The notes beneath the pieces are model-generated. The model was not told the origin of the DNA and made no database searches. It was given only the letters and a program-made list of their open reading frames with translations. 64,000 bases of DNA from assembly GCA_963921195.1 (NCBI GenBank), contig OY992539.1, forward strand, positions 98,092,964-98,156,963, in the 5' to 3' direction. Position 1 is the stretch's first letter. Each line of letters starts with the position of its first letter. Made by a program: the position numbers and the translations under genes. This document shows, in pieces, positions 10,368-57,744 of the stretch. This DNA comes from Pegoplata infirma (taxonomy: Eukaryota; Arthropoda; Insecta; Diptera; Anthomyiidae).

Positions 10368-11375
10368 CCCTGCAAGCATTTCGATACGAAGAAGATACCC
10401 TAGCGTATCGCCTGGAAGATAAATAGTATTGCCGGGGATATCCTCTTCGTATTGCGGAAGAAACCCCCGTTGGGAGAAATCGTGTCCCGAAAGCAATACG
10501 TCCAGCAGATACGAAAGCAATTCTTCTGGAAGATAAATTGGCAATATTGCCAGATAATCATTTGGAAGATAATTTGAAGATATCATTGAAATTTTACCTA
10601 GAAAATATTGCCAGATATTTGCATAAACGTTTGAGGAATATAATTTAAAGATGTTGATAAAATCATGGTTTTTATTGTATTTACATGAAATTATTTAGAT
10701 AATAATTTACAAAAAATCTGAAATACAAGGAGCTTACATATTAGATCATGATAAAGAACATAATGTATAAATGCTACAGAACCCATCTTTTGGCACAATA
10801 TTTATATTTCTGACTTCTTTCAGGACGTCAGGGCTTCTAAGATTTTTATTACTTATTCAGTTGTCCTTGACCCACTAACCTTTAATTTATGTAATTTTCG
10901 GGACCTAATGGAGAAAAAATTCGGTTTATTTATGTTATAATGCTTTTATTGCTTTCGAATTCACTACTTACCTCAAAAACACAGTTATAACAAATTATTG
11001 TTTGATTTATTTAACATTTATTGCATAAAACCCCCGAAAGACTAAACAATGAAAAGAAAATATATTTTTGACATACATAAATAAAATATTTTGAATTTCG
11101 TATTTTTTTCATCCGTATGATACGAGGAAGATATCGTATATATATCGCGCAGGTGAAAAATCACCTGGAAGATAAATTTTCGATAATCTGGCGATTTTAT
11201 CTACTTTATAAATACCAAAAAATAAATATTTTTTTTTTTAAATATTGCTAAAATATCCTCGAAGTGATAAAAGGAAGATTTTCAAAAATACTACTTTGAT
11301 GATTTTTTATTACGATAAAAAGAAGATATTGCCGCAATTTCTCCTAGGCGATATTTCTTCCAAATGCCTGCAGGG
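10368..11375. mobile_element. TIR element CCCTGCA...TGCAGGG with AT duplication
   Basis: The left end CCCTGCAAGCATTT and, inverted, the right end CCCTGCAGGCATTT form terminal repeats. Each is flanked by AT (10,366-10,367 and 11,376-11,377). ACTTGTATGATGA occurs just outside both ends. The interior repeats GGAAGATAAAT at least four times and holds no convincing transposase. It belongs to the CCC...GGG group with 2-bp duplications. Superfamily unknown. Confidence 0.65.
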
Positions 11376-11405
11376 ATACTTGTATGATGATGTACTTGTA
11401 CATAT

Positions 11406-11715
11406 GAGGCATTCCACACCAAATGTCCCGCTACAGAAAAACAATGTGTCCCGTAAATTTCTGAATAGGTTCTTTGGATAGCCCTATAAGAAACTAAGAA
11501 CATTGCGTTTTTGGTTTTTCATATTTTCAAAAACTGGGCTTAGGAGGAGTGGTCAAATATTGGAAAAATGGTCAAATTTGTGGCGAGTTGCCTTGATTAA
11601 ATATGTATCACATTAAAACGGAGTGCACCACAATGTGAAAAATTTACATTCTTATATAATTTTGTATGGGCTATCGATTAATTTTTTTTTTTTGGAAAAT
11701 TTTCCGAACCCGAAA
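11406..11715 (+). mobile_element. Half-element of the TGAGGCATTCC foldback family
   Basis: A single arm beginning TGAGGCATTCCACACC and following copy 1's arm through GCTTAGGAGGAGTGGTC and GTATGGGCTATCGATTA. It stops near GAACCCG, where copy 1 has its CAGAACCCGTTCTG. The second arm is absent. Confidence 0.75.
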
Positions 11716-11719
11716 TTTA

Positions 11720-12915
11720 ATTTGGGGGTATAGGTTTTTTTGGCTGTATTTTTTTTTGTTTCTGTTTACTTTTGCTCAAAAAATTGCCCCATCCTATTGG
11801 GCAGGAACGAAAATAAAAATAACACACTCTTTTTGGAAAATTACAGATAAAGTGCTATTCAAAGAACAAATATTTTTTTATATTTTTAAATGTGTTTAAT
11901 TAAATTTAGACATATAAATCCTACTGATAATAATACTAGCTGGACTGTTTGAAACCGGTATGGGAATATCAAAAATGTCTATAATTTTTAGAAATTTTAA
12001 CAAATATAATTAGAGCCCGAGCTCGATCTGTTCTTACAGAAAAACACAATATATAATTTAGATACATTTAACAAAGATTTTATGATTTTTACATCATGGC
12101 CAAGTAGATAAAAATAATTTGTTCCTGTTAATAGCTACACAGCTGAAAAAATGTAATTCAATAAATCATTTCAATAAGATTTTTTTTTATTTTTATTGCA
12201 ACATTCTCTTGTTCACTCTGCAGTACTTAAAATGACATTCAACTACTATAGTTTCACTGAAAAAGACTTTTGAAATATTGTCACATAATTGTTTTTAAAT
12301 AAAAAAAAATAAAAACATTTCCATACTAAGATTTATATCCTTTTTATCCTTTTCTTTTAAAAAACAAAACGTCAGAACAGACATAAACTATTGAAAAAGG
12401 CAATTGAAAACACCTGTGTAAAATTTATAACTCTACCAAGAAGAAAATTATAGAAATTGTTCTTTATCATACATTTTTTTTTTTCATTTTTTTTCACTTT
12501 TTTCCACTTTTTATATTTAAAGGGTATTCACGTAAGAAATTTTTACTATTGAAAAAATACGAAATATTTGGAAGACAAAAATGTCTATATAAACAAAGTA
12601 GAGTATCTAAACTCGATAACCGGTTAAAAAAAAAAAAAACAAAAACAGATTTGTTTCGGGTTCGATTTGAGTTCGTTTAATTGAAAAACTAGGTCTTCTT
12701 TGTACAGTAGATCGTGTAGGGTAAACACCCGGTAATTTTTTTTGTAGTTTTTTTAATAATAAATTATTTGTATATGTTTTAGGGGCCTCTGGCTTCGAAT
12801 TTAACAAAAACAAAAAAAAAAAATCAAAAAATCAAAAATGGCGATTTTCATTTTTTGTGGACCAAGCCCTCAAAACCGATTTTTTTTTTTAATATTTTAA
12901 TGTGTATGTAAAAGT
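11720..12915. other. Unassigned AT-rich stretch with one shared segment
   Basis: About 11,945-12,055 (GAAACCGGTATGGG ... AGAGCCCGAGCTCGATCTG) matches segments at 33,710-33,830 and 34,145-34,250, marking a dispersed repeat of unknown type. The remainder is AT-rich with homopolymers, and no gene is supported. Confidence 0.45.
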
Positions 12916-12916
12916 T

Positions 12917-13012
12917 ATTATACCCTCCAACTACAGTATGGGGGTATACTCACTTTGTCATTCCGTGTGTAACGCATCAAAATATCGGTTTAGGACCCCA
13001 TAAAGTATATAT
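12917..13012 (-). mobile_element. DINE-1-like repeat (copy A3), 3' segment
   Basis: Starts TATACCCTCCAACTACAG and runs to GACCCCATAAAGTATATAT, where a TIR element interrupts it. The rest of the same copy resumes at 14,279. Confidence 0.8.
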
Positions 13013-16578: not shown

Positions 16579-16738
16579 TTAACCCTGCTGTTAGGTTAGA
16601 AAAAACTTACGGATGTTAGGTTAGTGGACCATTTGGTCCATACTTAATATTCAAACAAAATAACAATTTAATATTATATTTGTATATATTTTGGATCATT
16701 TCTACCTAAATACGATTATTTTAAGCTTAACTCAACGT

Positions 16739-17256
16739 TAGAGATGAGTGCGTGAGTGAATTTTTGGTCACGCCCACGCAAGAAATATTATAATCGCTCA
16801 TGAATCACTCACTCGATTTTTTCTTTACTCACTTACTACTCACGTCAGTAAAACTAAAATAAGTTCCGCTCACGCGTGACTCACGTGATTCATAATTACG
16901 CTCACCCCAATTCCCGCAATATTCACTTACAAATACACAATTTTAAGGAAATTAAAAAAAAAAAAATTTCATATATTAGCAGACCGTTAATTTGAATTTT
17001 AACTGATTGCTAAACGAAAAATAAAAATAAAACTATAAATAAAACTGAAAACAATACAAAAAAATTATATTGAATCACGCAAGAAAAATGGCACTCACGC
17101 AAAAATTAGGCTCGATTTCTAATCACTCACACATAAAAGTTTTGGAATCACACTCACTCAAGCATGATTCTCGTAATTAACTAGACTTTCGCTCGAGCGT
17201 GAGTCACGCGTGATTCACGTGAACCACGCAAATCACGTGATCAGCACCCATCTCTA
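16739..17256. mobile_element. hAT-like MITE rich in CACTCACG (copy 1), nested in piggyBac relic
   Basis: Starts TAGAGATGAGTGCGTGAGTG and ends GCACCCATCTCTA, giving the terminal repeat TAGAGATGxG. Flanks are CTCAACGT and CTCAACAC, an 8-bp duplication matching at 6 of 8. The arms are packed with CACTCACG/CGTGAGTG words, giving dense self-complementarity. An 8-bp duplication and TAGAGATGGG ends fit the hAT superfamily. No ORF is present. Confidence 0.75.
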
Positions 17257-17404
17257 CTCAACACAGCTAACGTAAACATTGGCTGAGGGATTCCCTTTTT
17301 TCATATTCTTTACTTTAGAGATTGTTTTGTATTATAATTCAACAAAAGGTACATATGTATATAAGTTTTGTTTTTTCCTATAATTTCTAATGATTCATCT
17401 CATT

Positions 17405-17504
17405 TAGGTGGCGTGGATATTGCTGATCAAATGGTTGCTTCCTACTGTACGAAACGCGCAAGAATTTGATGGCCTAACGTTGTATTTGCAAACATACTTG
17501 ATAT
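17405..17504 (+). pseudogene. piggyBac transposase relic
   Basis: The plus strand encodes GGVDIADQMVASYCTKRA, the conserved block around the last catalytic Asp of piggyBac (DDE_Tnp_1_7) transposases, where GVD.xDQM...Y..KR is characteristic. It is followed by a stop in ...RI*WPNVVFANILDI. A MITE then interrupts the frame at 17,505. After it, 17,896 onward reads LNACILFSKIDVSW, a plausible continuation. The rest of the protein is missing. It is clearly nonfunctional: there is a stop codon, an insertion and no N-terminal half. Confidence 0.85.
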
Positions 17505-17886
17505 CCCAGCAAAACCTTAAACATGGTAACGGTTATGTAATGCATTACCATGTAATGCATATCCCAAAAAAAAATAAAAAATGTGCATTAATTTTCGCCT
17601 ACCGCTTACCATAGGCATTCACTATATTTATTTTTCATGCATTATGTAAAAATCATGCATTACTTTGAGTGACATCCCAAACAAAAAGAATCAATCAAGT
17701 ATAGGGTATTGTAAGGTTGCCTTATTCTATACTGGATTAATGATTTTTGTTTGGGATAAGAAAAATACAAAAAAGTTATGCCTATGGTAAGCGATAGGGA
17801 AAAACGCATATTTTTGTTTTTTTTTTTGCTATGCATTACATGGTAATACATTACATGGCCGTCACCATTTTAAAAGTTTTGCCGGA
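17505..17886. mobile_element. CCCAGCAAAAC-ended MITE nested in the piggyBac transposase relic
   Basis: The ends read CCCAGCAAAACCTTAAACATGG and, inverted, TCCGGCAAAACTTTTAAAATGG. Arms share CATGTAATGxATTACCATG over about 60 bp. It is flanked by AT on both sides (17,503-17,504 and 17,887-17,888). A lone end of the same family lies at 25,880-25,942. Confidence 0.8.
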
Positions 17887-18483
17887 ATACCCACTTTGAA
17901 TGCGTGCATCCTATTTTCTAAAATCGACGTTTCATGGGCTCCGGCTATCGAAATCGCAGGTGAAAATATACTATGGACCAAATGGTCCCTTAACCTAATA
18001 AACGTAACTTTTTATTTTTCTCAGTCCTGGTTTAAGTCAGAACCTAGATTTTTTGTAAATAACATTGTTTTACAAAAAGACCCCATGAGCAAAAAATCTG
18101 AGCTAGTATATATCACCGTTCAAAAGTTACAAAGGAAACAATCCAAAAATTGGACCAAATGGGCTTAACCTAACAGCAGGGTTAACAATAATATAGCAAT
18201 TATAAAAGAGAACATAAAGCTATAATAATATTATAAATTCCATTAGATATTTTATAAAATTTGACCAATTATTCTATTAAGCCAATAAAACATATCCGTT
18301 TTTGGTTTTTTAAATTTACAAAATATTGCAATTTTTTTGAAAATTAAATTTTCTTCGAAAATTTAAGAAATGATTAAGGATGCTACTTTGAGGAACCATT
18401 TCTTCAAAATTATTTATCCAATTTATAAAATTTGAAAATCATTGGATTCTAACAATTGTTCTTTTTATATCACTACATTAAAA

Positions 18484-19108
18484 AACAAGTAAGAGTGTTC
18501 AATTCGGCTGTGCTGAATATTTAATACCCTTCAACATGGAAAAAACTAAAAAAAGAGGGTCGGTTGTGGTAATTAGAGCAGGGACGGGGAATTTCCTCTA
18601 GAATATGTGCTTACAAATTCATGATTGTGCTTTTTGCACTAAAGAAATACAAGTTTATCATTATTAAAAAAAAATATTCCACGCCCGGAAAAAACGACAT
18701 TTTCAAATATTCTGGATCCAAATGCAGGTCTTTTAACTTCTTGTAGCATAAAAAAGTTGCATTTGTTCAACAAAAACAAAATATCATGTAAAAAATGGTA
18801 TTTTTTCAGAGGTTGGTTTAGACCTTTACGCGGGGACTTTTTTCTCCCTGGTCCGATTTTGGTCATTTACGAACTTAGCCTACCTATGAACATAAGACAT
18901 ATTCGTGCCATATTCATGTCGGGAGTCTAGGTCTTTTATTTTGGACTGCATCGTGTTAACTACAGAAGGCCAGACGGACGGACATCACTAGTATGTCTTA
19001 GAATCGATCACTGATGATAAATATATATACTTTATGAGGTCCTAGACCGATATTTTGATGCGTTACGCACGGAATGACATCCTCCATACTGTAGTTGGAG
19101 GGTACAAA
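18484..19108 (+). mobile_element. DINE-1-like repeat (copy A5)
   Basis: From AACAAGTAAGAGTGTTCAAT and the hairpin ATTCGGCTGTGCTGAAT through GGTTGGTTTAGACC, a short GACGGACGG tract and AATGTCTTAGAATCGATCAC to GTAGTTGGAGGGTACAAAAA. It has the full element structure with a shorter microsatellite than copy A4. Confidence 0.8.
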
Positions 19109-24457: not shown

Positions 24458-25614
24458 CCCAGCAGAAATAAATCGAGATTTTGGCGACACAGCGTCTGTT
24501 TATCCAAAGAGCGCTCTTAGGGATGCAGTAAAAGGAAGTGGAAAAAATTTTAATTTTTTTTAAGATTTTTTATATAAAACTTATAATGTGTAATTATTTT
24601 TTGATAAAATTTCACTCTTGCTTTCCTTTTTAATATTTTTAACACTTTTTGAATAAAAAAACATGAGTTTTAGACAAAGACACATGATTTGACTGCATCA
24701 TTATTGCGCATTAATCAGCGCTGCAAAGAATGCTTCAATCATAGCATCTTTGACCGCTGTTCCCAAAAAAAATCCCATAAAAAATGTGAAAATGAAAATT
24801 TCCGATATTTTTTTGATGTTCATTTCCGATTTTTTTTTCATTTTGTTTCACATAAATAAAGTTTTGTAAAGTAAAACGAATGAATTTTTTTGTTATATTT
24901 TTTTAAATTTTAGTTATTTGATTTAAACTTTGATTCAAAGTCTTTGAATGAACACGTAAACAAACACCAAACTCGATTTCATGTGATTCGGAAAATATCA
25001 TGTGATTTGAAAAGTTTTGAAAGACATAACAGAGGCCTTTAACACATTTTAAATGATTATAAATAGGCCAACCAAAACACAGCCAATGCTTATTTGTTAT
25101 TTCGATGAATAAACCGATTTGGATTAAACACAAACTCTAATCACGAAAAAACAGAAAAACTAAGATACATTTGTTATAACTTCTTTTGAATATTTTGTTC
25201 ATTTATTGGTAAATTTTTTGTTTTTTATCTCATTTTTACATTTTAATTTTAGAACTTTAATTTTAGAAAATACAAATTTTATTACAAAATCAGCGCTAAA
25301 AAGAATTTACAGCATCTTTATTCTGCTTAAATCAGCTCTACAAAGATACATGAATTCACTGCATCTTTAATCTGCTTAAATCAGCGCTAAAAAGATACAT
25401 GAATTTACAGCATCTTTATTCTGCTTAAATCAGCGCTCTAAAGACACGTGATTTCAGTGCATCTAAAGAGCGCTGTTTCTGTGTATCCAACTAGCGCTCT
25501 AAAGTGGGACATCGCCTTAGAGAATCATGCATGAATTCAGCGCAATTGGATGCGCTCCTTTACTCAAGTTCCCCTTCCAAAAGCTGCTGAACGTTCAGCA
25601 AAATTTCTGCTGGG
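24458..25614. mobile_element. CCCAGCAGAAAT-ended TIR element (copy 1)
   Basis: Ends CCCAGCAGAAAT and ATTTCTGCTGGG are perfect inverses flanked by AT (24,456-24,457 and 25,615-25,616). The interior has recurring GCATCTTTATTCTGCTTAAA and CAGCGCT words. It has no transposase. The second copy at 45,421-47,665 has GT duplicated instead and contains two nested elements. Confidence 0.8.
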
Positions 25615-25879: not shown

Positions 25880-25942
25880 AGGGTTATACATTACCTGGTA
25901 ATGTGTTATATAATCACCACCCATTACCAAAGTTTTGCTGGG
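25880..25942. mobile_element. Single end of the CCCAGCAAAAC MITE family
   Basis: ATTACCAAAGTTTTGCTGGG is followed by AT and preceded by a CATTACCTGGTAATG palindrome, as in the 17,505-17,886 element. The opposite end was not found. Confidence 0.6.
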
Positions 25943-27789: not shown

Positions 27790-29180
27790 ATTTGAGTTTA
27801 TTTTAAAAAGGATTATAAGTTCAAGAAACTGCCATTGTATTATTGTTTGCTGTAGAATCGACTGGTGAAATCAGATTTGCAATATATTCAACCGTTTTTT
27901 CTCTGCAGAAAAATCAGCTTAAAATCCGCGTTTTCAGATTCGTTGAAACACCCCAAGGAGCGAACATTTTTTCAAAAAAAAAAATAGCGGCAAATTCAAA
28001 CTTATGTTTGAAATTCGGGGCCTAGTGGATGAACGGAGAAAGCATCAGAAAAACTCTTAAAGCAGGGTACCTTTTGCACCTTTTGTTGTAATCAGTTTTG
28101 ACAGAACTTTGTACACAAAAAACGGCTAAAAATAGCTAAAAAAAGGCTAAAAAATATATTTTATTTGTTTAAGAAAATATAATGTAAATTCATATATTGT
28201 TTCGATTTTATATACGGGACCTTCCAAAAAATGTTGCTCAAATTTTAGTCATTTTTGGAAATGGTATCTTCAGATAAATTTGTACATTGGCACATAAATA
28301 GCCTACATAAATATGATATATGTGGCATATATAGTTTTTTTAAGTAAGGTGTATTTACAGAATTATGGCGGGTCAAAGTTCGACTTTTTTAGCAAAAGAG
28401 AGAAAAATACATCACGCTTAAAGAACTGTAACTTTTTAACCAATGACCCTTTTTAACAAATGTTCGCTCATGTAAAAACTGTGATCTTCTTCTTTAAAGA
28501 AATATTTTTAAAATAATACGGATTTTTTACAGAAATGATGCAAAAATTCAAAAACATTTTATCTTTTCGAATATTTAAAAAAACACTTCTTCGATTAAAA
28601 AAAAAAAAATCTAGTTAAAAATAACAATGATTTGTATAACATATTTTAAATTTAGATAAAAAAATATTCTGTTTTAAGTACGAGGTTCTCATATTTTTAC
28701 TTTAGAAAATTAAAATTTTTAATATTTTGAATGTTTTTCAAAATTTTAAAAGTATATTTTTCTTTGAAAATTTAAATTTTTATATTAGAGAAATTTAAAA
28801 TTTTAATTTTCTAAGGTAAAATATAAGAACCTCGTACTAAAATCAGAATATTTTTGATCCCATGGGGATCCCACTCTGAATTTAGGATATGTTATTCAAA
28901 ACAGTATTGTTTAACACCAACTTTTTTTTTTAAATCAAAGATGTGTTTTTTTTAATATTCGCAAAAATAAAATGTTTTTGAATTTTTGCAATACTTCCGA
29001 AAAAACACCGTATTCTTTTCAAAATTTTTCCTAAAAGAGAAAAAGTTAATATTTTATATGAGCCATTACTTGTAATAATCAGGTTTCTAGTTAAAAAATT
29101 AGAGCACGTTAAACCCCAGCAAATTTTTGCATTACTAGTAATGAGTATAGTAATTAGTAATAATTATTGGTATGTACTTA

Positions 29181-29704
29181 CAAGGGAAGTATTGGGGTGT
29201 CTCGGCTTTTCGGCCATATCAGTGTTTCAAAATTTCGTTGTCACCTTATGAAACCATATGGACCTCTGGAAAAATTTCGATATCTCACGAACTAACAGGA
29301 ATATCCTCTAGAGCAAAAACACGTGTCGACTTAAATTTAATAAAGATTATTTTGTATTCATATGGACATCGTAGCTCTATGTCTTCATATAAATACCCCC
29401 CAAAATTCTCACATTTTCATAAAAAAAGTATTTAGCGAAGCCAAACTTTTACAAGGTTATGCCACCTTTGGATAGGCATTAAAAAAACCTTTCTTCTCAT
29501 ATGTAAACATCATATAGTTTCTTAGGAAGAAATGGCTGAAAAATCCAAAAAACGATTTTTTCGCAATTTTTTGACCCATGTTTTGAACCCCTAAATCCCC
29601 GATATGGCCGATAAGCCGAGACACCCCAACCTTAGAATTGCCTCTTTTATATATATTTTACGTTTCATGCAAATCGGTTCATAAGGGTTGAGATACTTCC
29701 CTTG
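29181..29704. mobile_element. CAAGGGAAGT-ended MITE, copy 1 (TTA duplication)
   Basis: Ends CAAGGGAAGTAT and ATACTTCCCTTG, with TTA directly repeated outside (29,178-29,180 and 29,705-29,707). Inner arms share GGGGTGTCTCGGCTT and its inverse. A 3-bp TNA duplication fits PIF/Harbinger or CACTA-type elements. The second copy at 48,429-49,028 has TGA. Confidence 0.75.
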
Positions 29705-30336
29705 TTAGTCATTGCATGAAACACTACTTATTCTATAAAGGCCGTGAGATAAAAATAACACTGTGCTACACCAAAAATATGCAGGGGTTCTCATATCAAA
29801 ATTCGGGTTGGTTGGAGTCCATAGAGTACTGATATACTCATAGTTTTTCTGGATCACTTCGTTAAGTACGTTTTTTATTGGCAAATGTGTTGGAAAACGG
29901 AAATTCTTAAATTACAATTTTAAAAAATTATTACTTTGTTAGTTTGCAACCGATTTTCGATTTTATGGATTTGTTTTAAAGGTATAGGTCTTACCTTTCA
30001 AACAAAACAAAAAAATTAAAAATCGATCAAGAATTGGCTGAGCTACGATCGCTTAAGTAAAAAAAAAACGTATTTTTTGAAAAATTTGTCATATTCTTTA
30101 CACTCTAAGTTGAAAGTGCATCATTAAACAATTTTTTTGAATTTTTTGTAAAAAAGTATAGCAAAGTAGCTTTCCAAAACACCAAAAAACATAACAATCG
30201 GTTTAAAAATTAATGAGTTATGCTAAGTTTTGTGATAGGGCATTTTTAAATTTTTTCAGAAACGCTTGTAATTCAAGCATTATTCATAAATCTTGTTACT
30301 AGTAGTAATTTTATGCGCATATGCATATTAACTAGA

Positions 30337-30460
30337 GATGGGAACGTAATTAGCTTTGTGCGTGATTCACACATGATCAGAAGTGAGCGTGATTGAAAAT
30401 TAATTTTACTCACGTGGTTGTTAGTGAGTGTCAGTGTGAGTGGAATAAAAAAATGGGCGT
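30337..30460. mobile_element. CACTCACG-rich hAT-like MITE half, left arm
   Basis: TAGAGATGGGAACG followed by CGTGATTCAC and GTGAGTG words. The mirrored half ends CCCATCTCTA near 32,945. Each arm of the larger palindrome carries one half, so this element is older than, or part of, the palindrome. Confidence 0.65.
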
Positions 30461-30693
30461 GTCAGTTACTTCCAAATCCTATTTATAATTTTTTGGGTTT
30501 GTTTAAAAAATATCAGTGTTACTTCTTAAACAAAAAAATATTGAGAATAGGTTAAAAACAGGCTAAGGTGCGCTTGTTTAAGTAAAAAACCTTTTTTGAA
30601 GAGTTATACCTGCAACATTTTTATGACAGAAAAAGCTGTGCGCTTGCAAACATGTTTTTTTAAAACGAACCTGTTTATAAATATATGTACATG

Positions 30694-32567
30694 TGAGGCA
30701 TTCCACACCAAATGTTCAGTGAGAAAAAAATTGTGTACCAAAATTTTTCAATGGGTCCCGGGTAAAAAAGTTTTTTATATAACTAGGGTGAGATTTCCAT
30801 GCAAATGCATGTTTTTTGTCGAAAGCCCAAAAACGATATCGACCAATTATCTTTCCGAATCAAGAGATTTGCATTAAATGGCATCCTTTTGTTTTCGCAT
30901 ATTTTGCATATTTTGGTGAAAATACATATTTTTGCATATTTTGATTTTAAATGCATATATTGTGCATATTTCGAACTTTTAAGTGCATATTATTGCATAT
31001 TTTGGCATAAATTAGCAAAAACACAAATTGAAATTATTTTTTTTCAAAAACTATTTTAAATTTTTAAAATTTATTTTGAAAATCAGAAAAATTACTTTTT
31101 TTTCTTCTTAATTTTTTTTATAGATTTTCTTAATTTTTAAAAAAATCTTGCTAGACAAACATCTAATCTTTAAAAAAACAAAAGTGGCCGGATTTTTTAT
31201 AAATTGACTTTTTTAAAAAATGGAAAATTTCAGAACGGGTTCTGAAAATTTTCCAAAAAAAATTTTAATCGATAGCCGATACAAAACTATACAAGAATGT
31301 AAATTTTTGAGATTTTGGTGCATTTCGTTTTTATTTGATATATATTTAAACAAGGCAACTTGACACAAACTTGACCATTTTTCCAATATTTGACCACGCC
31401 TCCTAAGCCCAGTTTTTGAAAAATTGAACAGCCAAAAACGTAATTTTCTTAGCTCCATATATGAGGCATTTCACACCAAATGTTCAGCAAAAAAAAAAGT
31501 TGTGTCGTGTCAATATGAAATCATTTTCAAAGTATTCGCTCTTAGGGTACTATTAAATAACAAAAATAAAATTTAAGTTTTTTTCAAAAAGTGGGCCTAG
31601 TAGGCGTGGTCAAAAATTGAATATCTAACTTTTTTGCCTGAGCATCTTTACTTCAATATTTATGCAAATTAAATGAAACACAGTAAAGTCTTAAAGACAA
31701 AAGCTGTTTATAGATTTTTGAATGGGCTATCAATTAAATGGGCTATCAATAAAAGCTGAATGTGCTATCAATAAAAGATGAAAATTGGAACAATAAGAAA
31801 ATGAAAATTGGAACATTTTCAGAAGAAGTTCTGAATTTTTTAAATTTAAACTTAAACTTTATTTATCAAAAAACATGCCGCAATTTCATTTGTTTTTTAT
31901 TTTTTTTAAAAAAGTTAAAGGAATTTTCTATCTGATCTGAAATTTTTAGAGATGTGTTTTGCCTTGTTTTCGAAAAATCAAAATTCAAAAATTGCAACAC
32001 GCTTATTTTATACAATAATGGTATTTAAAACATGTGCGTATGAGTAATATCAATACTTAAAAAATATTTTAAGAGGCGATGGTAGCGTGAGTGAGTTTTT
32101 AATAACGATTACGCACGCTTATGAAAGAAAAAATTTAGTCACGCACGATATTTTATTTTGCTCACGCTCATTCACGCACACGTGAGTAGAAAAAAATAAG
32201 TTACGGTCATGATGTTCACGTGAGCGTGAGTAAAATAAAATATCGTGCTTGAATATTTTTTTTCTTTCATTAGCGTGCGTGATCGTGAATAAATACTCAA
32301 AAAAAAAGCAAAAAAGTTTGATATTTTTAATATTTGACCACGCCTACAATGCCCACTTTTTGAAAAAAACTTAAATTTTATTTTTGTTATTTATTAGTAC
32401 CCTAAGAGCGAATACTTTGCAAATTATATCCCATTGAAACCACTATGGTTTTTCTGTAGTGGAACAGTTGGTGTGGAATGCCTCACATGGCTATCCATAC
32501 AACCCATTTAAAAATTTACGGTTCACATGTTTTTTTTTTCGCTGAACATTTGGTGTGGAATGCCTCA
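30694..32567. mobile_element. TGAGGCATTCC foldback (copy 3) at the palindrome centre
   Basis: Starts TGAGGCATTCCACACCAAAT and ends TTTGGTGTGGAATGCCTCA. It contains the GCATATTTTGG minisatellite (30,893-31,012) and CAGAACGGGTTCTG. A second family member interrupts its right arm at 31,462: CTTAGCTCCATAT resumes as TGGCTATCCATAC at 32,490, which is contiguous in copy 1 (near 6,450). Confidence 0.8.
31462..32489. mobile_element. TGAGGCATTTC foldback nested in the previous one
   Basis: Ends TGAGGCATTTCACACC and GGTGTGGAATGCCTCA. Arms share AGTATTCGCTCTTAGGGTAC and its inverse, and GTGGGCCTAGTAGGCGTGGTC-like text. The centre (about 32,080-32,300) is a CACTCACG-rich palindrome containing GCACGATATTTTATTTT and its inverse. 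Confidence 0.8.
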
Positions 32568-33534
32568 TACGTATATTTATAAACAGGTAAAATTTCCATC
32601 AAATGATCCCACAATTTTACCAATTTCGTTTCAAAAATGTCAAATGTTTTTTGTCATAAAAATGTTGCAGGTATAACTCTTCAAAAAAGGTTTTTTACTT
32701 AAACAAGCGCACCTTAGCCTGTTTTTAACCTATTCTCGATATTTTTTTGTTTAAGAAGTAACACTGATATTTTTTAAACAAACCCAAAAAATTATAAATA
32801 GGATTTGGAAGTAACTGACACGCCCATTTTTTTATTCCACTCACACTGACACTCACTAACAACCACGTGAGTAAAATTAATTTTCAATCACGCTCACTTC
32901 TGATCATGTGTGAATCACGCACAAATCTAATTACGTTCCCATCTCTAGTTTATATGCATATGCGCATAAAATTACTACTAGTAACAAGATTTATGAATAA
33001 TGCTTGAATTACAAGCGTTTCTGAAAAAAATTAAAAATGCCCTATCACAAAACTTAGCATAACTCATTCATTTTTAAACCGATTGTTATGTGTTTTGGTG
33101 TTTTGGAAAGCTACTTTGCTATACTTTTTTACAAAAAATTCAAAAAAATTGTTTAATGATGCACTTTCAACTTAGAGTGTAAAGAATATGACAAATTTTT
33201 CAAAAAATACGTTTTTTTTTTACTTAAGCGATCGTAGCTCAGCCAATTCTTGATCGATTTTTAATATTTTTGTTTTGTTTGAAAGGTAAGACCTATACCT
33301 TTAAAACAAATCCATAAAATCGAAAATCGGTTGCAAACTAACAAAGTAATAATTTTTTAAAATTGTAATTTAAGAATTTCCGTTTTTCAACACATTTGCC
33401 AATAAAAAACGTACTTAACGAAGTGATCCAGAAAAACTATGAGTATATCAGTACTCTATGGACTCCAACCAACCCGAATTATCATATGAGAACCCCTGCA
33501 TAAATAATTTTTGGTCTTTTGTAGCACAGTGTAA

Positions 33535-34474
33535 TTAGTGCCTACAAGCTTACGAGTAGGGAGATAAATAACTACTTTCCTATAACGAGTAAAATAAGTA
33601 GTTATTTATAAGAAATAAAATAAATAGTTGCAAACAGAGTTTGAAGTAACTATTTATCATTAGATTATTCGTTTCCGCGAAACTTTAAGCTAAAAAGTAA
33701 AACATGGTATGGGAAATAACAGAAATGTCTATAATTTTTAGAAATTCAATTTTTCTTCTGCATTTTTTTTTCAACTTGAACCCTTTTAACAAATATAATT
33801 AGAGCCCGTGCTCGATCTGTACTTACAGAAAAAATCAAATAAAATTACTGACAAAATATGTCGCCATTAGGCACGTCTCCGAAACAGAAAATTCAAATTC
33901 CTTCATTTGTGTCTGCAATTCCAGATCATGTTGGTAACCCTTGCGAAATAATGTAAGAGACAAAAAAGTTGAAAGAAAGAATGAAGTGAGGTTGAGATTG
34001 CTAGAAATAGAATTGTAGTGTTGGAAACTGTCAAAATTTATTCTGTAGAAACTATAAATATTCACATATATAAAAAACAGTTTTTATTAACAAGACAAAC
34101 CGACATTTAAAACCCTACTGATGATGACACTAACTGGGGTGTTTGAAACCGGTATGGGAAATACCAGAAATGTCTATAATTTTTAGAAATTCAATTTTTC
34201 TTCTGCATTTTTTTTTTCCAACTTGAACCCTTATAACAAATATGCATTTTTCTTATTGGACTTAATTTCCCAAGTGAATTTGCAAATAAGTATTTATTTT
34301 TAACACTCTCAATAACTTATAATTTATATTATTGCAAACAAGTACTTACATATTACAATATAAACCACTAGTTGCTTTTTGGACTAAAGTAATGCAGTGG
34401 ATAATGAGTAGTTGTTATAAGTAATGTAATTGGCCGTCATTACTTTTCACAACACATTACCTAGTTTTTTCTGG
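33535..34474. repeat. Right part of the CCCAG element with a ~95-bp direct repeat
   Basis: The segment at 33,710-33,805 (GGTATGGGAAATAACAGAAA ... TTTTCTTCTGC) recurs at 34,152-34,248, about 440 bp apart, and in part at 11,945-12,055. The copies could be terminal repeats of a small element, but no TG...CA ends were established. The minus open frame at 33,835-34,065 has no recognisable motif. Confidence 0.5.
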
Positions 34475-34879
34475 GACGTGATGTATTTTTCTAACTTTTG
34501 CTAAAAAAGTAAACTTTGACCCGATATAATTTTAAAACTACATCGAATTTTTAAAATCCAAGTATGTAGCATATCTCATATAAACGTGGATATCTATGAG
34601 CCAAGTTGTCAGGGACGTCGAAAGTTATGTTTCCTAACAATGCACTATAGAAAATTTTCGGGTATTTTCTGGCCAAAAGCCTAAAATTTGGGATATCGAC
34701 TCGATATGTAACAAGGTTATTTGGCGGTAAGTTTTAAGGCATGATCGCACCTGACAATTCGCGTTTTTAAGGCAAGTTTGTAATATAATTTTGTCATTAA
34801 TTTTTTCATCCACGCCCACAAAAGTAGGCGGACAAAAAAATTTAGCGTCATTTTTTTTTAATTTTTAAGCAAATGTAAT

Positions 34880-45208: not shown

Positions 45209-45813
45209 TAATCAACATTTTCTAACCCGCCTCTGATTTTATGACGACATATCAAGTGGGCTTTCATTAAAAAAAAATTCATCCGATTTCGTGTAAAGCC
45301 TTGGATGTGCCAGATCAAAACAGGTTTAGATAAAATCATCGCGCTTTCCGCTCAGAATGGCTTTAAGTAAAAAGTCAAAAAGCAAATCAGTTCTACTCGT
45401 TAAGGCACGTCTTTTGGTGTCCCAGCAGAAATAAATCGAGATTTTGGCGACACAGCATCTGTTTATAGCATACCGTAGCGCATCCAAAGAGCGCTCTTAG
45501 GGATGCAGTAAAAGGAAGGGGAAAAAATTTTAATTTTTTTTTAAGATTTTTTATATAAAACTTATAATGTGTAATTATTTTTTGATAAAATTTCACACTT
45601 GCTTTCCTTTTTAATATTTTTAACACTTTTTGAATAAAAAAACATGAGTTTTAGACAAAGACACATGATTTGACTGCATCATTATTGCGCATTAATCAGC
45701 GCTGCAAAGAGCGCTTCAATCATAGCATCTTTGACCGCTGTTCCCAAAAAAAAATCCCATAAAAATGTGAAAATGAAAATTTCCGATATTTTTTTGATGT
45801 TCACTTCCGATTT

Positions 45814-46015
45814 TTTATACCCTCCACTTAGTGATAGAGGGTATATATAAGTTTGTCATTCCGTTTGTAACTCATCGAAATATCGATCTGGGACCCCATA
45901 AAGTATATATATTCATGATGCCCGATCGATTTTAAGACATTCTAGCGATGTCCGTCTGTCCGTCTGTCTGTCTGTCTGTCTGTGGAAAATGCTGTCGCGG
46001 ACAAAATATTGCACA
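45814..46015 (-). mobile_element. DINE-1-like repeat, B subfamily (copy B3), 3' segment
   Basis: From ATACCCTCCACTTAGTGATAG through TTTGTCATTCCG and CCGATCGATTTTAAGACATT to a GTCTGTCTGTCTG tract and ATATTGCACA, where it is interrupted. It provides the empty site for the 35,470-37,214 foldback. Confidence 0.85.
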
Positions 46016-46828
46016 CACTCAAAATATTTTGTAGGCAAAAACAAAAGAAAAACACACTTAAAACCAGTGAATAAACAATTGAAAACCATCCCAGTAATTA
46101 TTCATTTGTTTTGAAAACATCAACATTTATTTTTTACTGTTGGCAAAATTTTCTAAAATAAATAACACTAAACATTAAAAAACTACGTTTTTTTTCATTC
46201 TTTTTTACCAACAAATTCGAAAAAAATAACCTACGAAAACATTAAAAATTAATGATAGTTCTGTTATTTTTACCAACAAATTCCAAAAAAATAACCTACC
46301 AAAACATTAAAAATTAATGATTTCGTAGGTTATTTTATACAATTTTCTATTGAAATATTTTTTTAAAATTTTTTAATAAAATTTTGGGGAATCGATCCCG
46401 CAATCAACTACATTCTGGCCAGACACTCTACCCATCGTGCCAAAGCCACTTGATACAAATATGTTTTTATATTTCTATAAATAATTTTTTGAATTTTTTT
46501 TCTACAAACAAATAACTGACTTGTGTAGGTAAAAACTAATGATATATCATTAAAAAATACCAACAATTTAAAAAAAAATTACTTACACAAATCATTAAAA
46601 ATTTAAAGAATAATCAGTAGTTTTTACTTACAGAACAAAAATAAATGACTTTATAAATTAAATGTTAGTGAAAGTCTTTATTTTTTAGTGTGTTATTTTT
46701 GAAACAAAGGACTGATGTAGTCATTAATAAAAACTGAACATCAAACAAATGTTTTTTCTTTTAAAAACGACTAAACGGAAAACTTTTTAAATAAACTACA
46801 AACAGTTAATGACATAATTTTTTGAGTG
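46016..46828. mobile_element. CACTCAAAA-ended element nested in copy B3 (CA duplication)
   Basis: Ends CACTCAAAATA and TTTTTTGAGTG, with CA repeated on both sides. Copy B2 shows the empty site ATTGCACAGAG with one CA. The interior holds a tRNA-like segment at 46,386-46,442 (minus strand) and ACCAACAAATTCxAAAAAAATAACCTAC-like direct repeats. Confidence 0.8.
46386..46442 (-). repeat. tRNA-like segment inside the CACTCAAAA element
   Basis: Minus strand: A-box-like TGGCACGATGGGTAGAGTG and B-box-like GGGATCGATTCCC at tRNA-like spacing. There is no convincing acceptor stem. It is most simply a captured SINE/tRNA relic rather than a tRNA gene. Confidence 0.5.
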
Positions 46829-47258
46829 CAGAGATGACTGAAACTTAACATATTTATTGGAAGTTCTCCCGAGATGTTTGGTATTGCATTTGAGCGATAT
46901 CGGTTCAGCGGTTCAAAAGTTATGAACGAAAATGTAAGCACACCTCAAAAATTTCAGTACATTCAACATAACCTAAAAATACAAAATGCTTCAATTCGTC
47001 TTCTGGTTGGAATATGTAAACATAATTGAACACCAAATGGTATTTAAACAAGTACGAACATATTTTTTGACAAAAAAGTAAAAAAATCGCGGATTTTTTT
47101 TACCAAATTTTTTTTTCGCGGAAATTTTTTTTCAAAAAAATTTTTTTTTTCAAAAGTAATTTCCTTTTTAATAAAGTTTTTTGCAATAATCTTTTTGAAA
47201 TTATGGAGGGTATCACTACATTCGGCAAGGCCGAATTTAACTTTTTTACTTGTTTTTT
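46829..47258 (-). mobile_element. DINE-1-like copy B3, 5' segment
   Basis: Resumes CAGAGATGACTGAAACTTAA, passes GGAAGTTCTCCCGAGATGTT and CACCAAATGGTATTTAAAC, and ends with the hairpin ATTCGGCAAGGCCGAAT and AACTTTTTTACTTG. Confidence 0.85.
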
Positions 47259-47669
47259 TTTCATTTTGTTTCACATAAATAAAGTTTTGTAAAGTAAAAC
47301 GAATGAATTTTTTTGTTATATTTTTTAAATTTTAGTTATTTGATTTCAACTTTGAATTTACAGCATCTTTATTCTGCTTAAATCAGCTCTACAAAGATAC
47401 ATGAATTCACTGCATCTTTAATCTGCTTTAATCAGCGCTAAAAAGATACATGAATTTACAGCATCTTTATTCTGATTAAATCAGCGCTCTAAAGACACGT
47501 GATTTCAGTGCATCTAAAGAGCGCTGTTTCTGTGTATCCAACTAGCGCTCTAAAGTGGGACATCGCCTTAGGGAATCATGCATGAATTCAGCGCAATTGG
47601 ATGCGCTCCTTAACTCAAGTTCCCCTTCCAAAAGCTGCTGAACGTTCAGCAAAATTTCTGCTGGGGTAT

Positions 47670-49169: not shown

Positions 49170-49510
49170 CCCAATAAGCAATTTTAAAATTCAAGTGCAA
49201 ATCAAGTATAAAACAAGTGTAAATCAAGCCCTATATTCCAGCCTCTGCTTGATTTATACTTGAATTACACTTGAATACAATAGCATACTCCAGCAAAACG
49301 GACACTGGAATTCAAGCCCTGTTTTTACAGCCTTTTCCCTGGTTTTCAAGCGTAAAAACAGCGCTTGAATTCAAGTATCCGTTTTGCTGGAGAATGCTAT
49401 TGAATTCAAGTGTAATTCAAGTATAAATCAAGCATAGACTGGAAATAAGGGCTTGATTTACACTTGATTTATACTTGATTTGTACTTGAATTTTAAATGT
49501 GCTTATTGGG
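49170..49510. mobile_element. CCCAATAAGC-ended palindromic MITE (GT duplication)
   Basis: Ends CCCAATAAGCAATTTTAAAA and, inverted, CCCAATAAGCACATTTAAAA, with GT on both sides (49,168-49,169 and 49,511-49,512). Arms of about 150 bp are made of AAGTGTAAATCAAG words and include the 20-mer GAATTCAAGTATCCGTTTTG near the centre. 341 bp, noncoding. Confidence 0.8.
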
Positions 49511-51431: not shown

Positions 51432-51782
51432 ATATGTATGTATGTGTGTGTTCGATTGACACAGTGGTTTATTTTCGAAGCTTTTCGGAAATAATTCAAT
51501 AAATACCTAATGACCGATTTTGCCTGTTTAGAAATCAGACCAACGCAGGACTCAAACACATGTTTTCAACATGGGTCAGCCCTCTATCTCATTTTGTTTA
51601 GACTCTATCTTTGTTTCAACAGACGGACAGACAGACAGACAAAATAAAGTTTTAGCCGCAAACATATAGTCTCAGGGGCAAGACTGCATATTTATTCAGT
51701 TTTGCTTTGATACGTAGAACCTGAATCAAATTACGTCGGGTATGACGTAACGCCCAATAATTTTTCGTTTATACAATATAAA

Positions 51783-51906
51783 TGTAAGGAACCTAAGTCA
51801 AACGGACGTAAAAATTGCAAATTTGATGTGTTTTGTTTTTATTTACGTTTTGCGATACGCAATTTTATTCTGGTTCCTTACAGAAACAAATAGTGGCGAC
51901 CCTGAC
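51783..51906 (+). other. Possible LTR end with primer-binding-like site
   Basis: TGTAAGGAACC (51,783) and its perfect inverse GGTTCCTTACA (ending 51,882) bracket about 100 bp. 11 nt later comes TGGCGACCCTGAC, resembling a tRNA-Arg-type primer-binding site of fly LTR elements, which usually read TGGCGACCGTGAC. The segment is very short for an LTR, and no gag frame follows, so a small MITE beside a chance match is equally possible. Confidence 0.25.
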
Positions 51907-52206
51907 TCAGATTTTTATTTTTTTTTTTAATTTGTTACAAAGTGTTCTTGTCTTAGAAAGTATAAGAGATAACGTCTAAACAAATCTTTATTTCAGAAAC
52001 ATCGGATAAGAAACAAAAAAAGTGGCAAGCACTACAAGTTTTTGTATGCTTAAGATGGGATCCATCGTGTTTACTTAAGCTCGAGGGTAAATTTTCTATA
52101 ATCAGTATGAATTTTATTGCAATCTGTCCAATTGGCCGAATTATTTAAAAAAAATTCAAAAATAAACTACTGTTAATTGGAATGTATGTTAAAAAATATA
52201 ATAAAT

Positions 52207-52882
52207 ATGAGACATTCCAAACCTAATGTCCCGCTACAGAAAAACACGTGTCCCATGAATTTCTGAATATGATAGATAGCCCTATAAGAAACTTAGAAAA
52301 CTGCGTTTTTGGTTTTTTCTATTTTTCTAAACCTGGGCTTTTAGAGGAGTGTCTAAATATTGGAAAAAACTGTAAAATTTGTGTCGAGTTGTCATGATTA
52401 TTTTTTTATCAAATAAAAACGGAATGCACCATAATCTAAAAAATTGCATTCTTGTATATTTTTTATTCGCTATCGAATAAAAGTTTTTATTTTTAAAAAT
52501 TTTCAGAACCCGTTCTGAAATTACCATTTTTTAAAAAAGTCAAATATCTAAACTTATAAAAAAAATAAAAGTGGTTGGATTTTTTGATAAATTGACTTTT
52601 TTAAAAATTAAAAAATTTTAAAGATAATTTTTAGTCGATAGCCCATAAAAAAGTATACAAGAATGCAAATTTTTAAGATTATGATACATGCCGTTTTAAT
52701 TTTATAAATATTTAATCAAGGCAAATCGATAAAATTTTACCATTTTTTCAATCCTTTTCCTAATTTTAAAAAATTTTTTTTTTCTTAGTTCCATATAGGG
52801 CTACTTATTAGTACAACTAATTCAAAAATTCATGAGCCACACGTTTTTTTTTCGCTAAACATTTGGTGTGTAATGTCTCTTA
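52207..52882. mobile_element. TGAGACATTCC foldback family, copy 4
   Basis: Starts TGAGACATTCCAAACC and ends GTGTGTAATGTCTC. Contains CAGAACCCGTTCTG and family arm text in inverted order. More diverged than copy 1. Confidence 0.75.
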
Positions 52883-52889
52883 TGTGGAA

Positions 52890-54425
52890 TTTTATTATAT
52901 TATAAAATAAACTAACACAAAGAAGATAAAAATATGCTTGTGTTTAAATGGTTAGCAGATGGAAATATGTGTTTGGTGATATCACACATAGTTTTTTTCT
53001 GTTTTTTTTTTTTTTTTTGTTTTTAGAATTCATCGTTAATATGTCAAATGTTATCGTATCAACACATCACAAAATTACTGATTAATTTTCTATTCACTTT
53101 TATACGCTAATTCATGTTTATAGGACTATATGCGTTTAAGTATTTGTATATTAGGGAGATAATTAAATACAAAAATTTTATTGATAAGAGAAGAAAATCG
53201 CCTATCTGACAATAAAGTTTTTTTTTTTTTTTGGCGTTGAGATTAACAAAAAATGTACACAAATTATTGGGCGTATGTGCCGCCGCATTGTGGTGCCTTT
53301 TGTCGAAACCCGCCTTTTTTCTAAAACCAATTTTGACATAATCACTTGATAAAATAAATGAAATTATCTGATAAAGAATCCTCACTGATTAAAATTATTG
53401 AAATCGGATTAAAATTATGAATTGTAGAGTTGTTCAAAGTTGGTTGTTTTTAAAGGCTTTCTTGAAAAAGTATGCTCATTACAATATAAAGATATGAAAA
53501 CAAAGTTTGTCTGTCAAATACCTTTTTTTAAAGCTAAGTCTTGCAAACACTCTATACTTGAGTCTTTTATCAGATTTGATAGAATATAACTAAAAAGTGA
53601 TGGTTTGTGACGGGATATATTAATATCCCGTCACATTCAAAACTCTAACTTTTTAAATTAAAATTAAGTTCCAGTGTTTGGCTGTTTCAGGGGAAAATAC
53701 AGCTCTTGTGTTTAAGAGGATTTTTTTTTTAGATCCATATTTTTAAAACCACTTTTGTAGCTTAGTTTACAGATATGTTTCATAACTACTGTTTAAGATT
53801 TAAATGTTTTTAAACTTATTCCACTAGTTTACAGAAATTTTGATCCACAACATTTTGCATTTATTTTTTATGTAAAATCTCGCGCTGATTCAGAAAATTA
53901 TGTCTTAAGTTTCAAAAGAACAACATTTTTACCATTTAAAAAACGTGGTTTTACTTAACCAATCATTATCTGACCCCCGATTCCGTAGTTCGAAATTGCA
54001 CACAAATAGTATTTAGGGTACCCTAAGAAAGAATTTATATTGGCGTGGTATTTTCTTTTTATCTGCAGAACACGAACCTGTGGGTGTTGATTATTTTTCT
54101 AAAATCTGAGTCCACTGGTTCCTCATATGTGCAGGTACTTAATTTAAAGATAATTAAACAAAAAAAAGTTATTCTGCGTAGCCGGCCTTTATCAGGGCTT
54201 AAGGATTGAGTTTGTTTTTGTTATCCCGTAGAATTGATGATAACGTATATAATAAAAAATATCTTAAATTTAAAAACATTTCGGGTATGAGTCGGTAAAA
54301 AAAACTGTCTCCGTTTTTTGTTGTACTCCTCTAAAACTATGTTAAGTTTCATGGCAATCGAAGATGAATCTTCAGAAGCCCTTCATTGTAAGATTTATAA
54401 AATCCTGCCTCACTTTTTTATATGA
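52890..54425. other. Unassigned intronic stretch
   Basis: Contains poly-T runs (near 53,000 and 53,219) and GTCACAAACC/TATTAATATCCCGTCAC near 53,605-53,635 as a short palindrome (GGGATATATTAATATCCC). No exon or element recognised. Confidence 0.4.
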
Positions 54426-56190: not shown

Positions 56191-56449
56191 AATGCTTTAG
56201 TAAGTGGCGGGTACAGCTTTTGGGTTTGGGGTTTTTTTTCCTTCGAATAAATAAAAAATCATAACATCATCTTTGTCGGACGAGCAAGAACAGGGATACG
56301 TTTTTTTGCAAGAAAGTGATGGACAAGCTGTACAAACTACAAACTTATTCGTTTTTGGCGAATGAGGTTTGTTTTTTATTGTCATATTTGGTTTAGATAA
56401 ATTTTTTTAATTTGTTTTAAAAGAAAATTGTACAGTTACGTATACATAG

Positions 56450-56775
56450 AAAAAGTCTCAGATTCTAACATATTTGATGAATAGAAAAGTCTAAATCTGT
56501 TAATTTTTCAATAGAAGAAATTCTTTCCACATAAAAAATATCAAATATTCAGAGATTTTTATTGAAGAAATGTTTTTTTTTTTATAGGGAAAATGTCTCA
56601 GAATTTAGGACTTCCTCTTTACGAAAAATGTCTATGAATCTGAGACTTTATTCGTATAGAAAAATTTTCAGATTTTAAGAACTTTTTTCCACAGAAACAG
56701 TCTCAGATTATAGAAAAGGTTTCCTATTCTGAAGCATTTTTGAAATATTTTTTCTTTAGAAAAGGTCCCAGATTA
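56450..56775. repeat. ~32-bp minisatellite, left part
   Basis: Units AAAAGTCTCAGATTCTGAGAC-like with TTTTTCCTATAG spacers. The tract resumes at 57,745 after an inserted MITE. Confidence 0.75.
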
Positions 56776-57107
56776 TTACCCAGTTGGCAACGTCCTCGAG
56801 CCATCCTCAGTGACGGAGCGGTGACATGTCAGAGTCACTCCTGACTTACACAAGACATTTCTATGTACTGGGTTGAGGACAGTTTCATACAAATTTTTAA
56901 AATGTCCTCACTCAAAGTCAGCAGAAGTCAGGGCTGACCTTCTGGGGACATGTCATCTAGGACTTCTTTGGGGAAATGTCTGACGTAGGTCATGCAAAAA
57001 TACAAAAAATTTTCGTAATTCCTTTAGTTTTTACTTTTATCCATTTTCCTTTATTAATTATCTTTCACATATTTAGAAAAAACTTTTCGCTTTTTTTAGT
57101 CCCAACT

Positions 57108-57160
57108 GGATTTGAACCTGGAACCTCCAGTTTATTAGTCCAACACCTAACTACTTGTTC
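57108..57160 (-). repeat. tRNA-like segment inside the CCCAGTTGG element
   Basis: Minus strand: perfect B-box GGTTCAAATCC (57,108-57,118) and an A-box-like TAGTTAGGTGTTGG about 22 nt upstream. The acceptor stem is incomplete. Probably a SINE relic. Confidence 0.45.
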
Positions 57161-57427
57161 CAAACTCTATTTTGAAAATTGTTTGTCTATTTATTATTTT
57201 ATTCTACTTGTTAGATTTTGATTTTATTTTAAATAAATCGATAATATTGCCATCGTTTTCTTGGAAATTGAAGAGTTGCCCAGATTTAAAATACTAATTT
57301 AATGTACTGCTATTCTGAAGACATTTCCTTTAAGACGTCTTAGAGGAATTGTCCACACTCTTAAAGCAAACATTCAGTGCTGACAACGTTAGGACATGTC
57401 ATCATGGATTACCTATGATTTGTCACA

Positions 57428-57672
57428 CACAGAAAACAAATTTGTGAATTTCCAACTGAAATTCAGTTGTTACAACAAAAAATCGGTGGATGCATTTGAA
57501 TTACGGTTGAATCAACTATATATCGGTAGTTACAACAAAATTTTGTTATTACAACTGTCTTTTAATTCAAGCAACTATAAAATTCGTTAGCCACATCAAA
57601 ATGTAGTAGCAGCAACCGAATTTTGAGTTAATACAACTGAAAAATTCAGTTGGAAACTTATTTTTCTCTGTG
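57428..57672. mobile_element. Small MITE with CACAGAAAA ends
   Basis: CACAGAAAACAAATTTG at the left and ATTTTTCTCTGTG at the right, with CA outside both. Arms share TTCCAACTGAA and TTCAGTTGGAAA. Interior words are CAACTGxAATTCAGTTGTTAC-like. Nested in the 56,779-57,741 element. Confidence 0.65.
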
Positions 57673-57744
57673 CAGAACCTGAAGACATTTCCTCAAGGAA
57701 TCACTGTGGAAATTTCCTCAGGGACACATTTTCCAACTGGGTAG

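What the first reader, a model, noticed from the sequence alone, without database searches (positions are those of the whole stretch)
10368..57741. CCC...GGG elements with 2-bp target duplications that vary between copies
Seven elements with termini CCCTGCA, CCCAGCAAAAC, CCCAGCAGAAAT (two copies), CCCAGCAAAT, CCCAATAAGC and CCCAGTTGG are flanked by identical dinucleotides: AT, AT, AT, GT, AC, GT, TA. A 2-bp match at one locus is weak evidence, but agreement at all seven is unlikely by chance. P0 gives an empty site for one. A 2-bp duplication not restricted to TA does not fit standard Tc1/mariner behaviour and may mark one poorly described superfamily.
Basis: partly seen in the sequence, partly recalled or inferred. 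Interest (0 to 1): 0.75.

Follow-up and report, generated by a model that had tools for sequence, protein, structure and literature searches.

The report
Non-coding animal CACTA-type transposons
The seven repeats are real mobile DNA elements that duplicate two letters of the target where they land, and they fit a known but little-studied animal branch of the CACTA transposon superfamily.

Summary
All seven elements have the stated CCC...GGG ends and flanking dinucleotides; an empty site and an uninterrupted reading frame show a true 2-bp duplication at two. Genome copies of four families (E1, E3/E4, E6, E7), chosen without looking at flanks, give 104 independent insertions: 91 carry an exact 2-bp duplication of mixed sequence (13 of 16 dinucleotides; TA 24 times), 9 an exact 3-bp duplication, 4 neither; cross-paired control 16% and 5%. 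Neither TA nor TTAA explains them. The same genome has nine Transposase_21 (CACTA transposase) loci. In the three whose two ends I could find, the element begins CCCGAGTAAAAA or CCCGACTAAAAA and has a 2-bp duplication. CCC ends with 2-bp duplications were described for animal CACTA (TRC) elements in 2006 (PMC1636069). These are most likely non-autonomous animal CACTA elements: new families of a known kind. Minor novelties: the 3-bp minority, and family E6 with 20 identical sampled copies. No autonomous element with the window families' own ends was found, so the link rests on CCC ends and duplication length.

The parts
10368..11375 (.). E1: 1008-bp non-autonomous element, ends CCCTGCA...TGCAGGG, flanks AT/AT
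   Evidence: genome copies 17 of 20 with 2-bp and 3 of 20 with 3-bp duplication
17505..17886 (.). E2: 382-bp foldback element, ends CCCAGCAAAAC / worn TCCGGCAAAAC, flanks AT/AT, inserted in a piggyBac-like transposase remnant
   Evidence: the 19 usable genome copies of 20 fetched share the flanks of this one insertion
24458..25614 (.). E3: 1157-bp element, ends CCCAGCAGAAAT, flanks AT/AT
   Evidence: genome copies 26 of 30 2-bp, 1 of 30 3-bp, 3 of 30 neither
25881..25942 (.). Right end only of a second E2-like copy (GTTTTGCTGGG, followed by AT); left end not found
29115..34475 (.). E5: CCCAGCAAATTT...GTTTTTTCTGGG, flanks AC/AC, with large nested inserts
   Evidence: unoccupied paralogous site 28287-28562
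28287..28562 (-). Paralogous empty site for E5
   Evidence: 208/279 identical, no gap at the junction
45421..47665 (.). E4: same family as E3, flanks GT/GT, interrupted by a nested insert of about 1.4 kb
49170..49510 (.). E6: 341-bp hairpin element, ends CCCAATAAGC, flanks GT/GT
   Evidence: genome copies 31 of 36 2-bp, 4 of 36 3-bp, 1 of 36 neither; 20 sampled copies identical
56779..57741 (.). E7: ends CCCAGTTGG, flanks TA/TA; other copies about 716 bp, here with a nested insert of about 247 bp
   Evidence: genome copies 17 of 18 2-bp and 1 of 18 3-bp

Best explanation
E1 to E7 are non-autonomous cut-and-paste DNA transposons of the animal CACTA superfamily (EnSpm/TRC). They carry only ends and filler. 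A Transposase_21 protein made elsewhere in the genome binds the ends, cuts the element out next to CCC/GGG and joins it to a staggered cut in new DNA. The stagger is usually 2 bases and sometimes 3, so repair leaves a 2-bp (less often 3-bp) duplication of whatever sequence was there, with a lean to A+T in three of the four families counted. Shown: the ends, the 2-bp and 3-bp duplications, empty sites, many copies, and Transposase_21 elements in the same genome with CCC ends and 2-bp duplications. Inferred: that this enzyme group moves the window families, the cut-and-paste route, and the order of events.
For: 91 of 104 independent insertions have a 2-bp and 9 of 104 a 3-bp duplication. Nine PF02992 loci in the same genome, a match in 0 of the tool's 14 control genomes. 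Both ends were found for three of the nine: T2 7261 bp, TT/TT; T3 8453 bp, TA/TA; T7 9836 bp, TA/TA. T3 sits inside a sibling's inverted repeat, and the joined sibling sequence matches T2's repeat with one TA apart from point differences. T1 carries a 2191-bp element with the same ends, flanked TA/TA, at a place where T2 has a single TA. The open frames of T1 and T7 match Transposase_21 above its cut-off, T1 also DUF4218 below its cut-off. Print: CCC ends with 2-bp duplications in Schistosoma, Tribolium and Aedes (PMC1636069) and Hydra (PMC4298943).
Against: No Transposase_21 element with the inner TIR letters of E1 to E7 was found. blastn of E1, E3, E6 and E7 against the nine loci gave four short matches (29 to 248 bp); the E2 and E4 rows were left out of that printout and E5 was not in the query. 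Of the nine loci, T4, T5, T6, T8 and T9 yielded no accepted ends (a 15.3-kb T5 pair flanked AT was not followed) and T1's left end lay outside the fetched stretch. None of 140 window frames (of 1088 of 30 or more residues) matches a transposase at E 0.01, though that scan also missed the piggyBac remnant, so it is not sensitive. Subterminal repeats, usual in CACTA elements (recalled), reach the top 5% of random stretches in three of the seven stretches tested (E1, E2, E6). E2 counts as a single event, and E5 was not tabulated genome-wide.
Confidence: 0.87

Rival explanations
1. The families are moved by the transposase of an undescribed superfamily whose ends also begin CCC and whose stagger is 2 bp.
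For: No autonomous partner with the same inner TIR was found; the first three letters and the duplication length are a thin signature.
Against: The same signature sits on Transposase_21-coding elements of this very genome and in print.
Confidence: 0.09
2. Tc1/mariner miniature elements with TA duplications whose boundaries were misplaced.
For: TA is the commonest single dinucleotide (24 of 91); E7 in the window has TA.
Against: 67 of 91 2-bp duplications are not TA and include AC, CT, CC, TG, GA and CA. With the ends at CCC/GGG, direct repeats of exactly two letters stand out: in the first sets lengths 1, 2, 3, 4, 5 match in 9, 16, 1, 2, 0 of 18 E6 and 7, 18, 1, 0, 0 of 20 E3 insertions.
Confidence: 0.01
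3. piggyBac-type elements (which also begin CCC) with an altered target.
For: piggyBac ends begin CCC (recalled); a piggyBac-like element with TTAA flanks is in the window at 16583-18181.
Against: No TTAA duplication at any of E1 to E7; duplications are 2 to 3 bp of mixed sequence.
Confidence: 0.01
4. ISL2EU (PHIS) elements, known for 2-bp AT duplications.
For: 2-bp duplication, AT at three window elements.
Against: PMC4482050 gives AT duplications and TIRs usually starting GG (passages read); here 15 of 91 are AT and the ends start CCC.
Confidence: 0.01

Closest known systems
TRC elements, animal CACTA superfamily (SmTRC1 of Schistosoma mansoni; Tribolium CCCTAGTAGCACC...; Aedes CCCAGTCAAC), PMC1636069
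   Same: CCC at the ends, 2-bp duplication shown on empty sites, Transposase_21 in the coding copies
   Different: Window families are non-coding and have other inner TIR letters; SmTRC1 showed a 2-bp repeat in 7 of 14 copies, here 91 of 104 with 9 more of 3 bp
Spongebob (EnSpm-4N1_HM of Hydra), PMC4298943
   Same: TIR CCCAGCC..., 2-bp duplication, filed as TRC/CACTA; E2, E3 and E5 also begin CCCAGC
   Different: Beyond the first six letters the TIR differs; no longer alignment was tested
T1/T2/T3 and T7 Transposase_21 elements of the same genome
   Same: CCC ends, 2-bp duplications (T2, T3, T7), Transposase_21 frames
   Different: Inner TIR CCCGAGTAAAAA or CCCGACTAAAAA; no such end occurs in the window (exact search)
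Insect CACTA miniature elements listed with 2-3 bp TSD (Helicoverpa, PMC7764229 Table 2)
   Same: Non-coding, short, 2-3 bp duplications in an insect
   Different: That table lists CACTA by duplication length; no transposase link and no within-family 2/3-bp count was seen in the passages read

Membership tests
Animal CACTA (TRC/EnSpm) | TIRs begin with CCC | tested here: met
   one worn end at E2
Animal CACTA (TRC/EnSpm) | 2-bp target-site duplication | tested here: met
   91 of 104 independent insertions, plus 9 of 104 with 3 bp and 4 of 104 with neither; empty sites
Animal CACTA (TRC/EnSpm) | Transposase_21 coded by elements with these ends in the same genome | tested here: met
   T2, T3 and T7, 3 of 9 loci with both ends found
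Animal CACTA (TRC/EnSpm) | The window elements themselves code Transposase_21 | tested here: not met
   0 of 140 window frames at E 0.01; so they can only be non-autonomous members
Animal CACTA (TRC/EnSpm) | An autonomous copy shares the inner TIR of the window families | tested here: inconclusive
   not found at the nine loci; five loci lack accepted ends
Animal CACTA (TRC/EnSpm) | Transposase_21 protein mobilises the window families | not testable with these tools
   needs a transposition assay
Tc1/mariner | TA duplication | tested here: not met
   24 of 91
piggyBac | TTAA duplication | tested here: not met
   met only by the separate element 16583-18181
ISL2EU | AT duplication and TIR starting GG | tested here: not met

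The most novel reading that the evidence does not exclude
A single animal CACTA machinery cuts targets with a loose stagger: in each of four families most insertions carry 2-bp and a minority (9 of 104 in all) exact 3-bp duplications. That bridges the 2-bp rule of animal CACTA elements and the 3-bp rule of plant ones (plant rule recalled). One family (E6) has moved so recently that 20 sampled copies are letter-for-letter identical.
Probability: 0.6. Interest if true: 0.4.

Novelty: new member of a known kind. Interest (0 to 1): 0.27.

Why it matters
The papers I saw describe animal CACTA elements from few species, and miniature derivatives are easily left unclassified because TA, TTAA or 8-bp rules fail. 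CCC...GGG plus a 2-3 bp duplication of mixed sequence gives a simple rule for recognising them. The E6 family, with identical copies at different sites, is a candidate for a currently moving CACTA element in an animal.

Tried and rejected
Tc1/mariner, piggyBac and ISL2EU readings were rejected on duplication sequence and end letters. The E2 pairing 17505 to 25942 (8.4 kb) was rejected for the foldback end at 17886. An 80-bp unit at 17676-17755 looked like a nested CCC element with AT flanks, but the E2 genome copies listed span it, so it was dropped. A further candidate, 51753-53271 (CCCAATAATTTT, flanks CG/CG), has only an 11-of-12 TIR and was neither followed up nor counted. Paper search for the end CCCAGCA with transposon, TIR and TSD found none. 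A viral-contig scan for the E3 end found none. Pfam scans of ten long window frames gave no match over a cut-off. A 30-residue piece of the joined piggyBac remnant matched no Pfam family. A protein search with T7 against the genome did not complete. A first idea that the insert in E7 was SINE-like was dropped when one search showed short inverted ends instead.

Rows dropped before counts: 3 of 39 E6 and 2 of 20 E7 copies with the same flanks as another copy. E2 is not in the table of 104: of 20 stretches fetched one (L183) was cut short by my own wrong end coordinate, and the other 19 share one insertion; 11 of these were skipped as exact flank repeats and 8 printed. The one row marked 'none' (L177) is a match that stopped 3 bases short, not a different flank. 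E5 was not tabulated genome-wide. For many E3 copies the two halves were listed as separate matches and I took the outer coordinates. In one search, 74 of 741 E6 pairs differ at 42-45 letters; I read this as two copies compared in the opposite orientation. All genome copies come from the 40 scored candidates per search, so close relatives are over-represented.
Full report
What is there. The window (64 kb, about 30% GC) is dense in repeats. It lies on C4 of a 1.384-Gb assembly, G000, not named to me. From the style of its repeats I take it for a fly (recalled resemblance only); no call names the species, and the named relatives of its transposase range over ants, wasps, thrips, a horn fly and others. 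All seven elements of the finding are present with the stated ends and dinucleotides: E1 10368-11375 AT; E2 17505-17886 AT; E3 24458-25614 AT; E4 45421-47665 GT; E5 29115-34475 AC; E6 49170-49510 GT; E7 56779-57741 TA. E3 and E4 are one family (93-99% identity in the shared parts).

Is the duplication real? AT and TA are their own reverse complements, so at E1, E2, E3 and E7 the match could in principle be part of the inverted repeat; GT and AC at E4, E5 and E6 cannot. Empty sites settle the length. The joined E5 flanks with a single AC align to 28287-28562 (inverted, 208 of 279 columns identical) with no gap at the junction. The E7 flanks lie in a minisatellite whose other units align across the join (67-69%; weak). 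E2 sits in a piggyBac-like transposase remnant with TTAA flanks (16583-18181). Keeping one AT leaves the frame running on across the join, and a 65-residue piece aligns without gaps to the piggyBac transposase 6x67 at E 0.19 and to DDE_Tnp_1_7 at E 0.23: weak scores, but the right family and no break at the junction.

Genome-wide test. I searched the genome with E1, E3, E6, E7 and E2, took copies from the scored candidates without regard to flanks, and read the letters beside both ends. Counting insertions with the same flanks once, in either orientation: E1 17 of 20 2-bp, 3 of 20 3-bp; E3 26 of 30, 1 of 30, 3 of 30 neither; E6 31 of 36, 4 of 36, 1 of 36 neither; E7 17 of 18, 1 of 18. Together 91 of 104 2-bp, 9 of 104 3-bp, 4 of 104 neither. 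Pairing left and right flanks of different copies gives 16% 2-bp matches, and 5% 3-bp matches among the rest; binomial probabilities are 2e-57 for the 2-bp and 1e-9 for the 3-bp counts (rough, since the model treats sites as alike). The 2-bp units are TA 24, TT 20, AT 15, AA 10, AC 7, CT 3, GA 3, AG 2, TC 2, TG 2, GT 1, CC 1, CA 1. Units made of A and T only are 28 of 31 in E6, 22 of 26 in E3, 13 of 17 in E1, but 6 of 17 in E7. The nine 3-bp units are TAT (three times), ACT, TCT, AGT, ATC, ATA and TAA.

E2 is a caution. Its 19 usable genome copies carry the same flanks apart from point differences: one insertion into a piggyBac-like element that, I infer, was then amplified. It counts once.

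What moves them. Transposase_21 (PF02992), the CACTA transposase family, has nine matches in the genome and none in the tool's 14 control genomes. Both ends could be found for three: T2 (TT/TT, 7261 bp), T3 (TA/TA, 8453 bp) and T7 (TA/TA, 9836 bp), with ends CCCGAGTAAAAA or CCCGACTAAAAA. T1 to T3 are one family (98.6-100% identity over the longest shared parts). T3 is inserted in the inverted repeat of a sibling copy (itself AA/AA, 10932 bp); joining the sibling's repeat with one TA gives the undisturbed repeat of T2 apart from point differences. T1 holds a 2191-bp element with the same ends, TA/TA, at a place where T2 has a single TA. The T1 and T7 frames score above the Transposase_21 cut-off (39.4 and 30.6 against 28.6 bits); T1 also matches DUF4218 below its cut-off. 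A protein search with the T1 frame returned 75 relatives, 59 of them annotated with PF02992. So in this genome CACTA transposase genes travel between CCC ends and leave 2-bp duplications.

Comparison with print. PMC1636069 (abstract, two sections and passages read) describes animal TRC elements of the CACTA superfamily with CCC ends and 2-bp duplications, checked on empty sites in Schistosoma, and reports the same two features in Tribolium (CCCTAGTAGCACC...) and Aedes (CCCAGTCAAC). PMC4298943 (passages) files Spongebob, with Hydra TIR CCCAGCCAACATTGAC, there on the same two features. PMC7764229 (passages) lists insect CACTA miniature elements with 2-3 bp duplications; PMC9033116 (passages) names CACTA miniature families in two moths. 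ISL2EU (PMC4482050, passages) has AT duplications and GG ends and does not fit. I did not see in the passages read a count of 2-bp and 3-bp duplications within one animal family; the searches aimed at this were only, in an open-access library.

Limits. The link from the window families to Transposase_21 rests on CCC ends and duplication length, not on shared inner TIR letters or shared DNA (which printed E1, E3, E6 and E7 only). No transposase was recognised in 140 of the window's 1088 frames of 30 or more residues, a scan that also missed the piggyBac remnant. Subterminal repeats were high only in E1, E2 and E6 of seven stretches tested. Copies come from the scored candidates, which favour close relatives.

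Verdict. A sound observation. New families of a known kind, with a small new detail (3-bp minority) and one very young family: 20 E6 copies identical in all 190 pairs, the window copy differing at four places.

Noticed in passing
49170-49510; copies L036-L055: E6: 20 sampled genome copies are identical over 341 bp at 18 different sites, a very recent burst; the window copy differs at 4 letters.
   Followed up: partly
16583-18181: piggyBac-like element with TTAA flanks and ends CCCTGCTGTTAGGT carrying a broken transposase; copies with E2 at the same place are many, so it seems to have amplified after E2 landed in it.
   Followed up: partly
29754-33536: Large inverted-repeat element (about 1-kb arms, 93% complementary, ends reading CACTGTGCTACA) nested in E5; boundaries and duplication not resolved.
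   Followed up: no
29192-29629: Element with ends GGGGTGTCTCGGC nested in E5.
   Followed up: no
57425-57672 (E7 positions 647-894): Insert of about 247 bp in E7, absent from the other copies looked at, with short inverted ends (CACAGAAAA...TTTTCTCTGTG) and a short CA repeat at its edges; a stretch 86% like it lies near Transposase_21 locus T8.
   Followed up: partly
51753-53271: Possible eighth CCC element (CCCAATAATTTT) with CG/CG flanks.
   Followed up: no
L022/L023: A Transposase_21 element inserted into the inverted repeat of its own sibling, with both duplications readable (TA inside, AA outside).
   Followed up: yes
1-3000: Probably a LINE-type retrotransposon remnant: one of the 140 frames matches Exo_endo_phos_2 (which does not say which); the place is my inference from the long frames there.
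   Followed up: no
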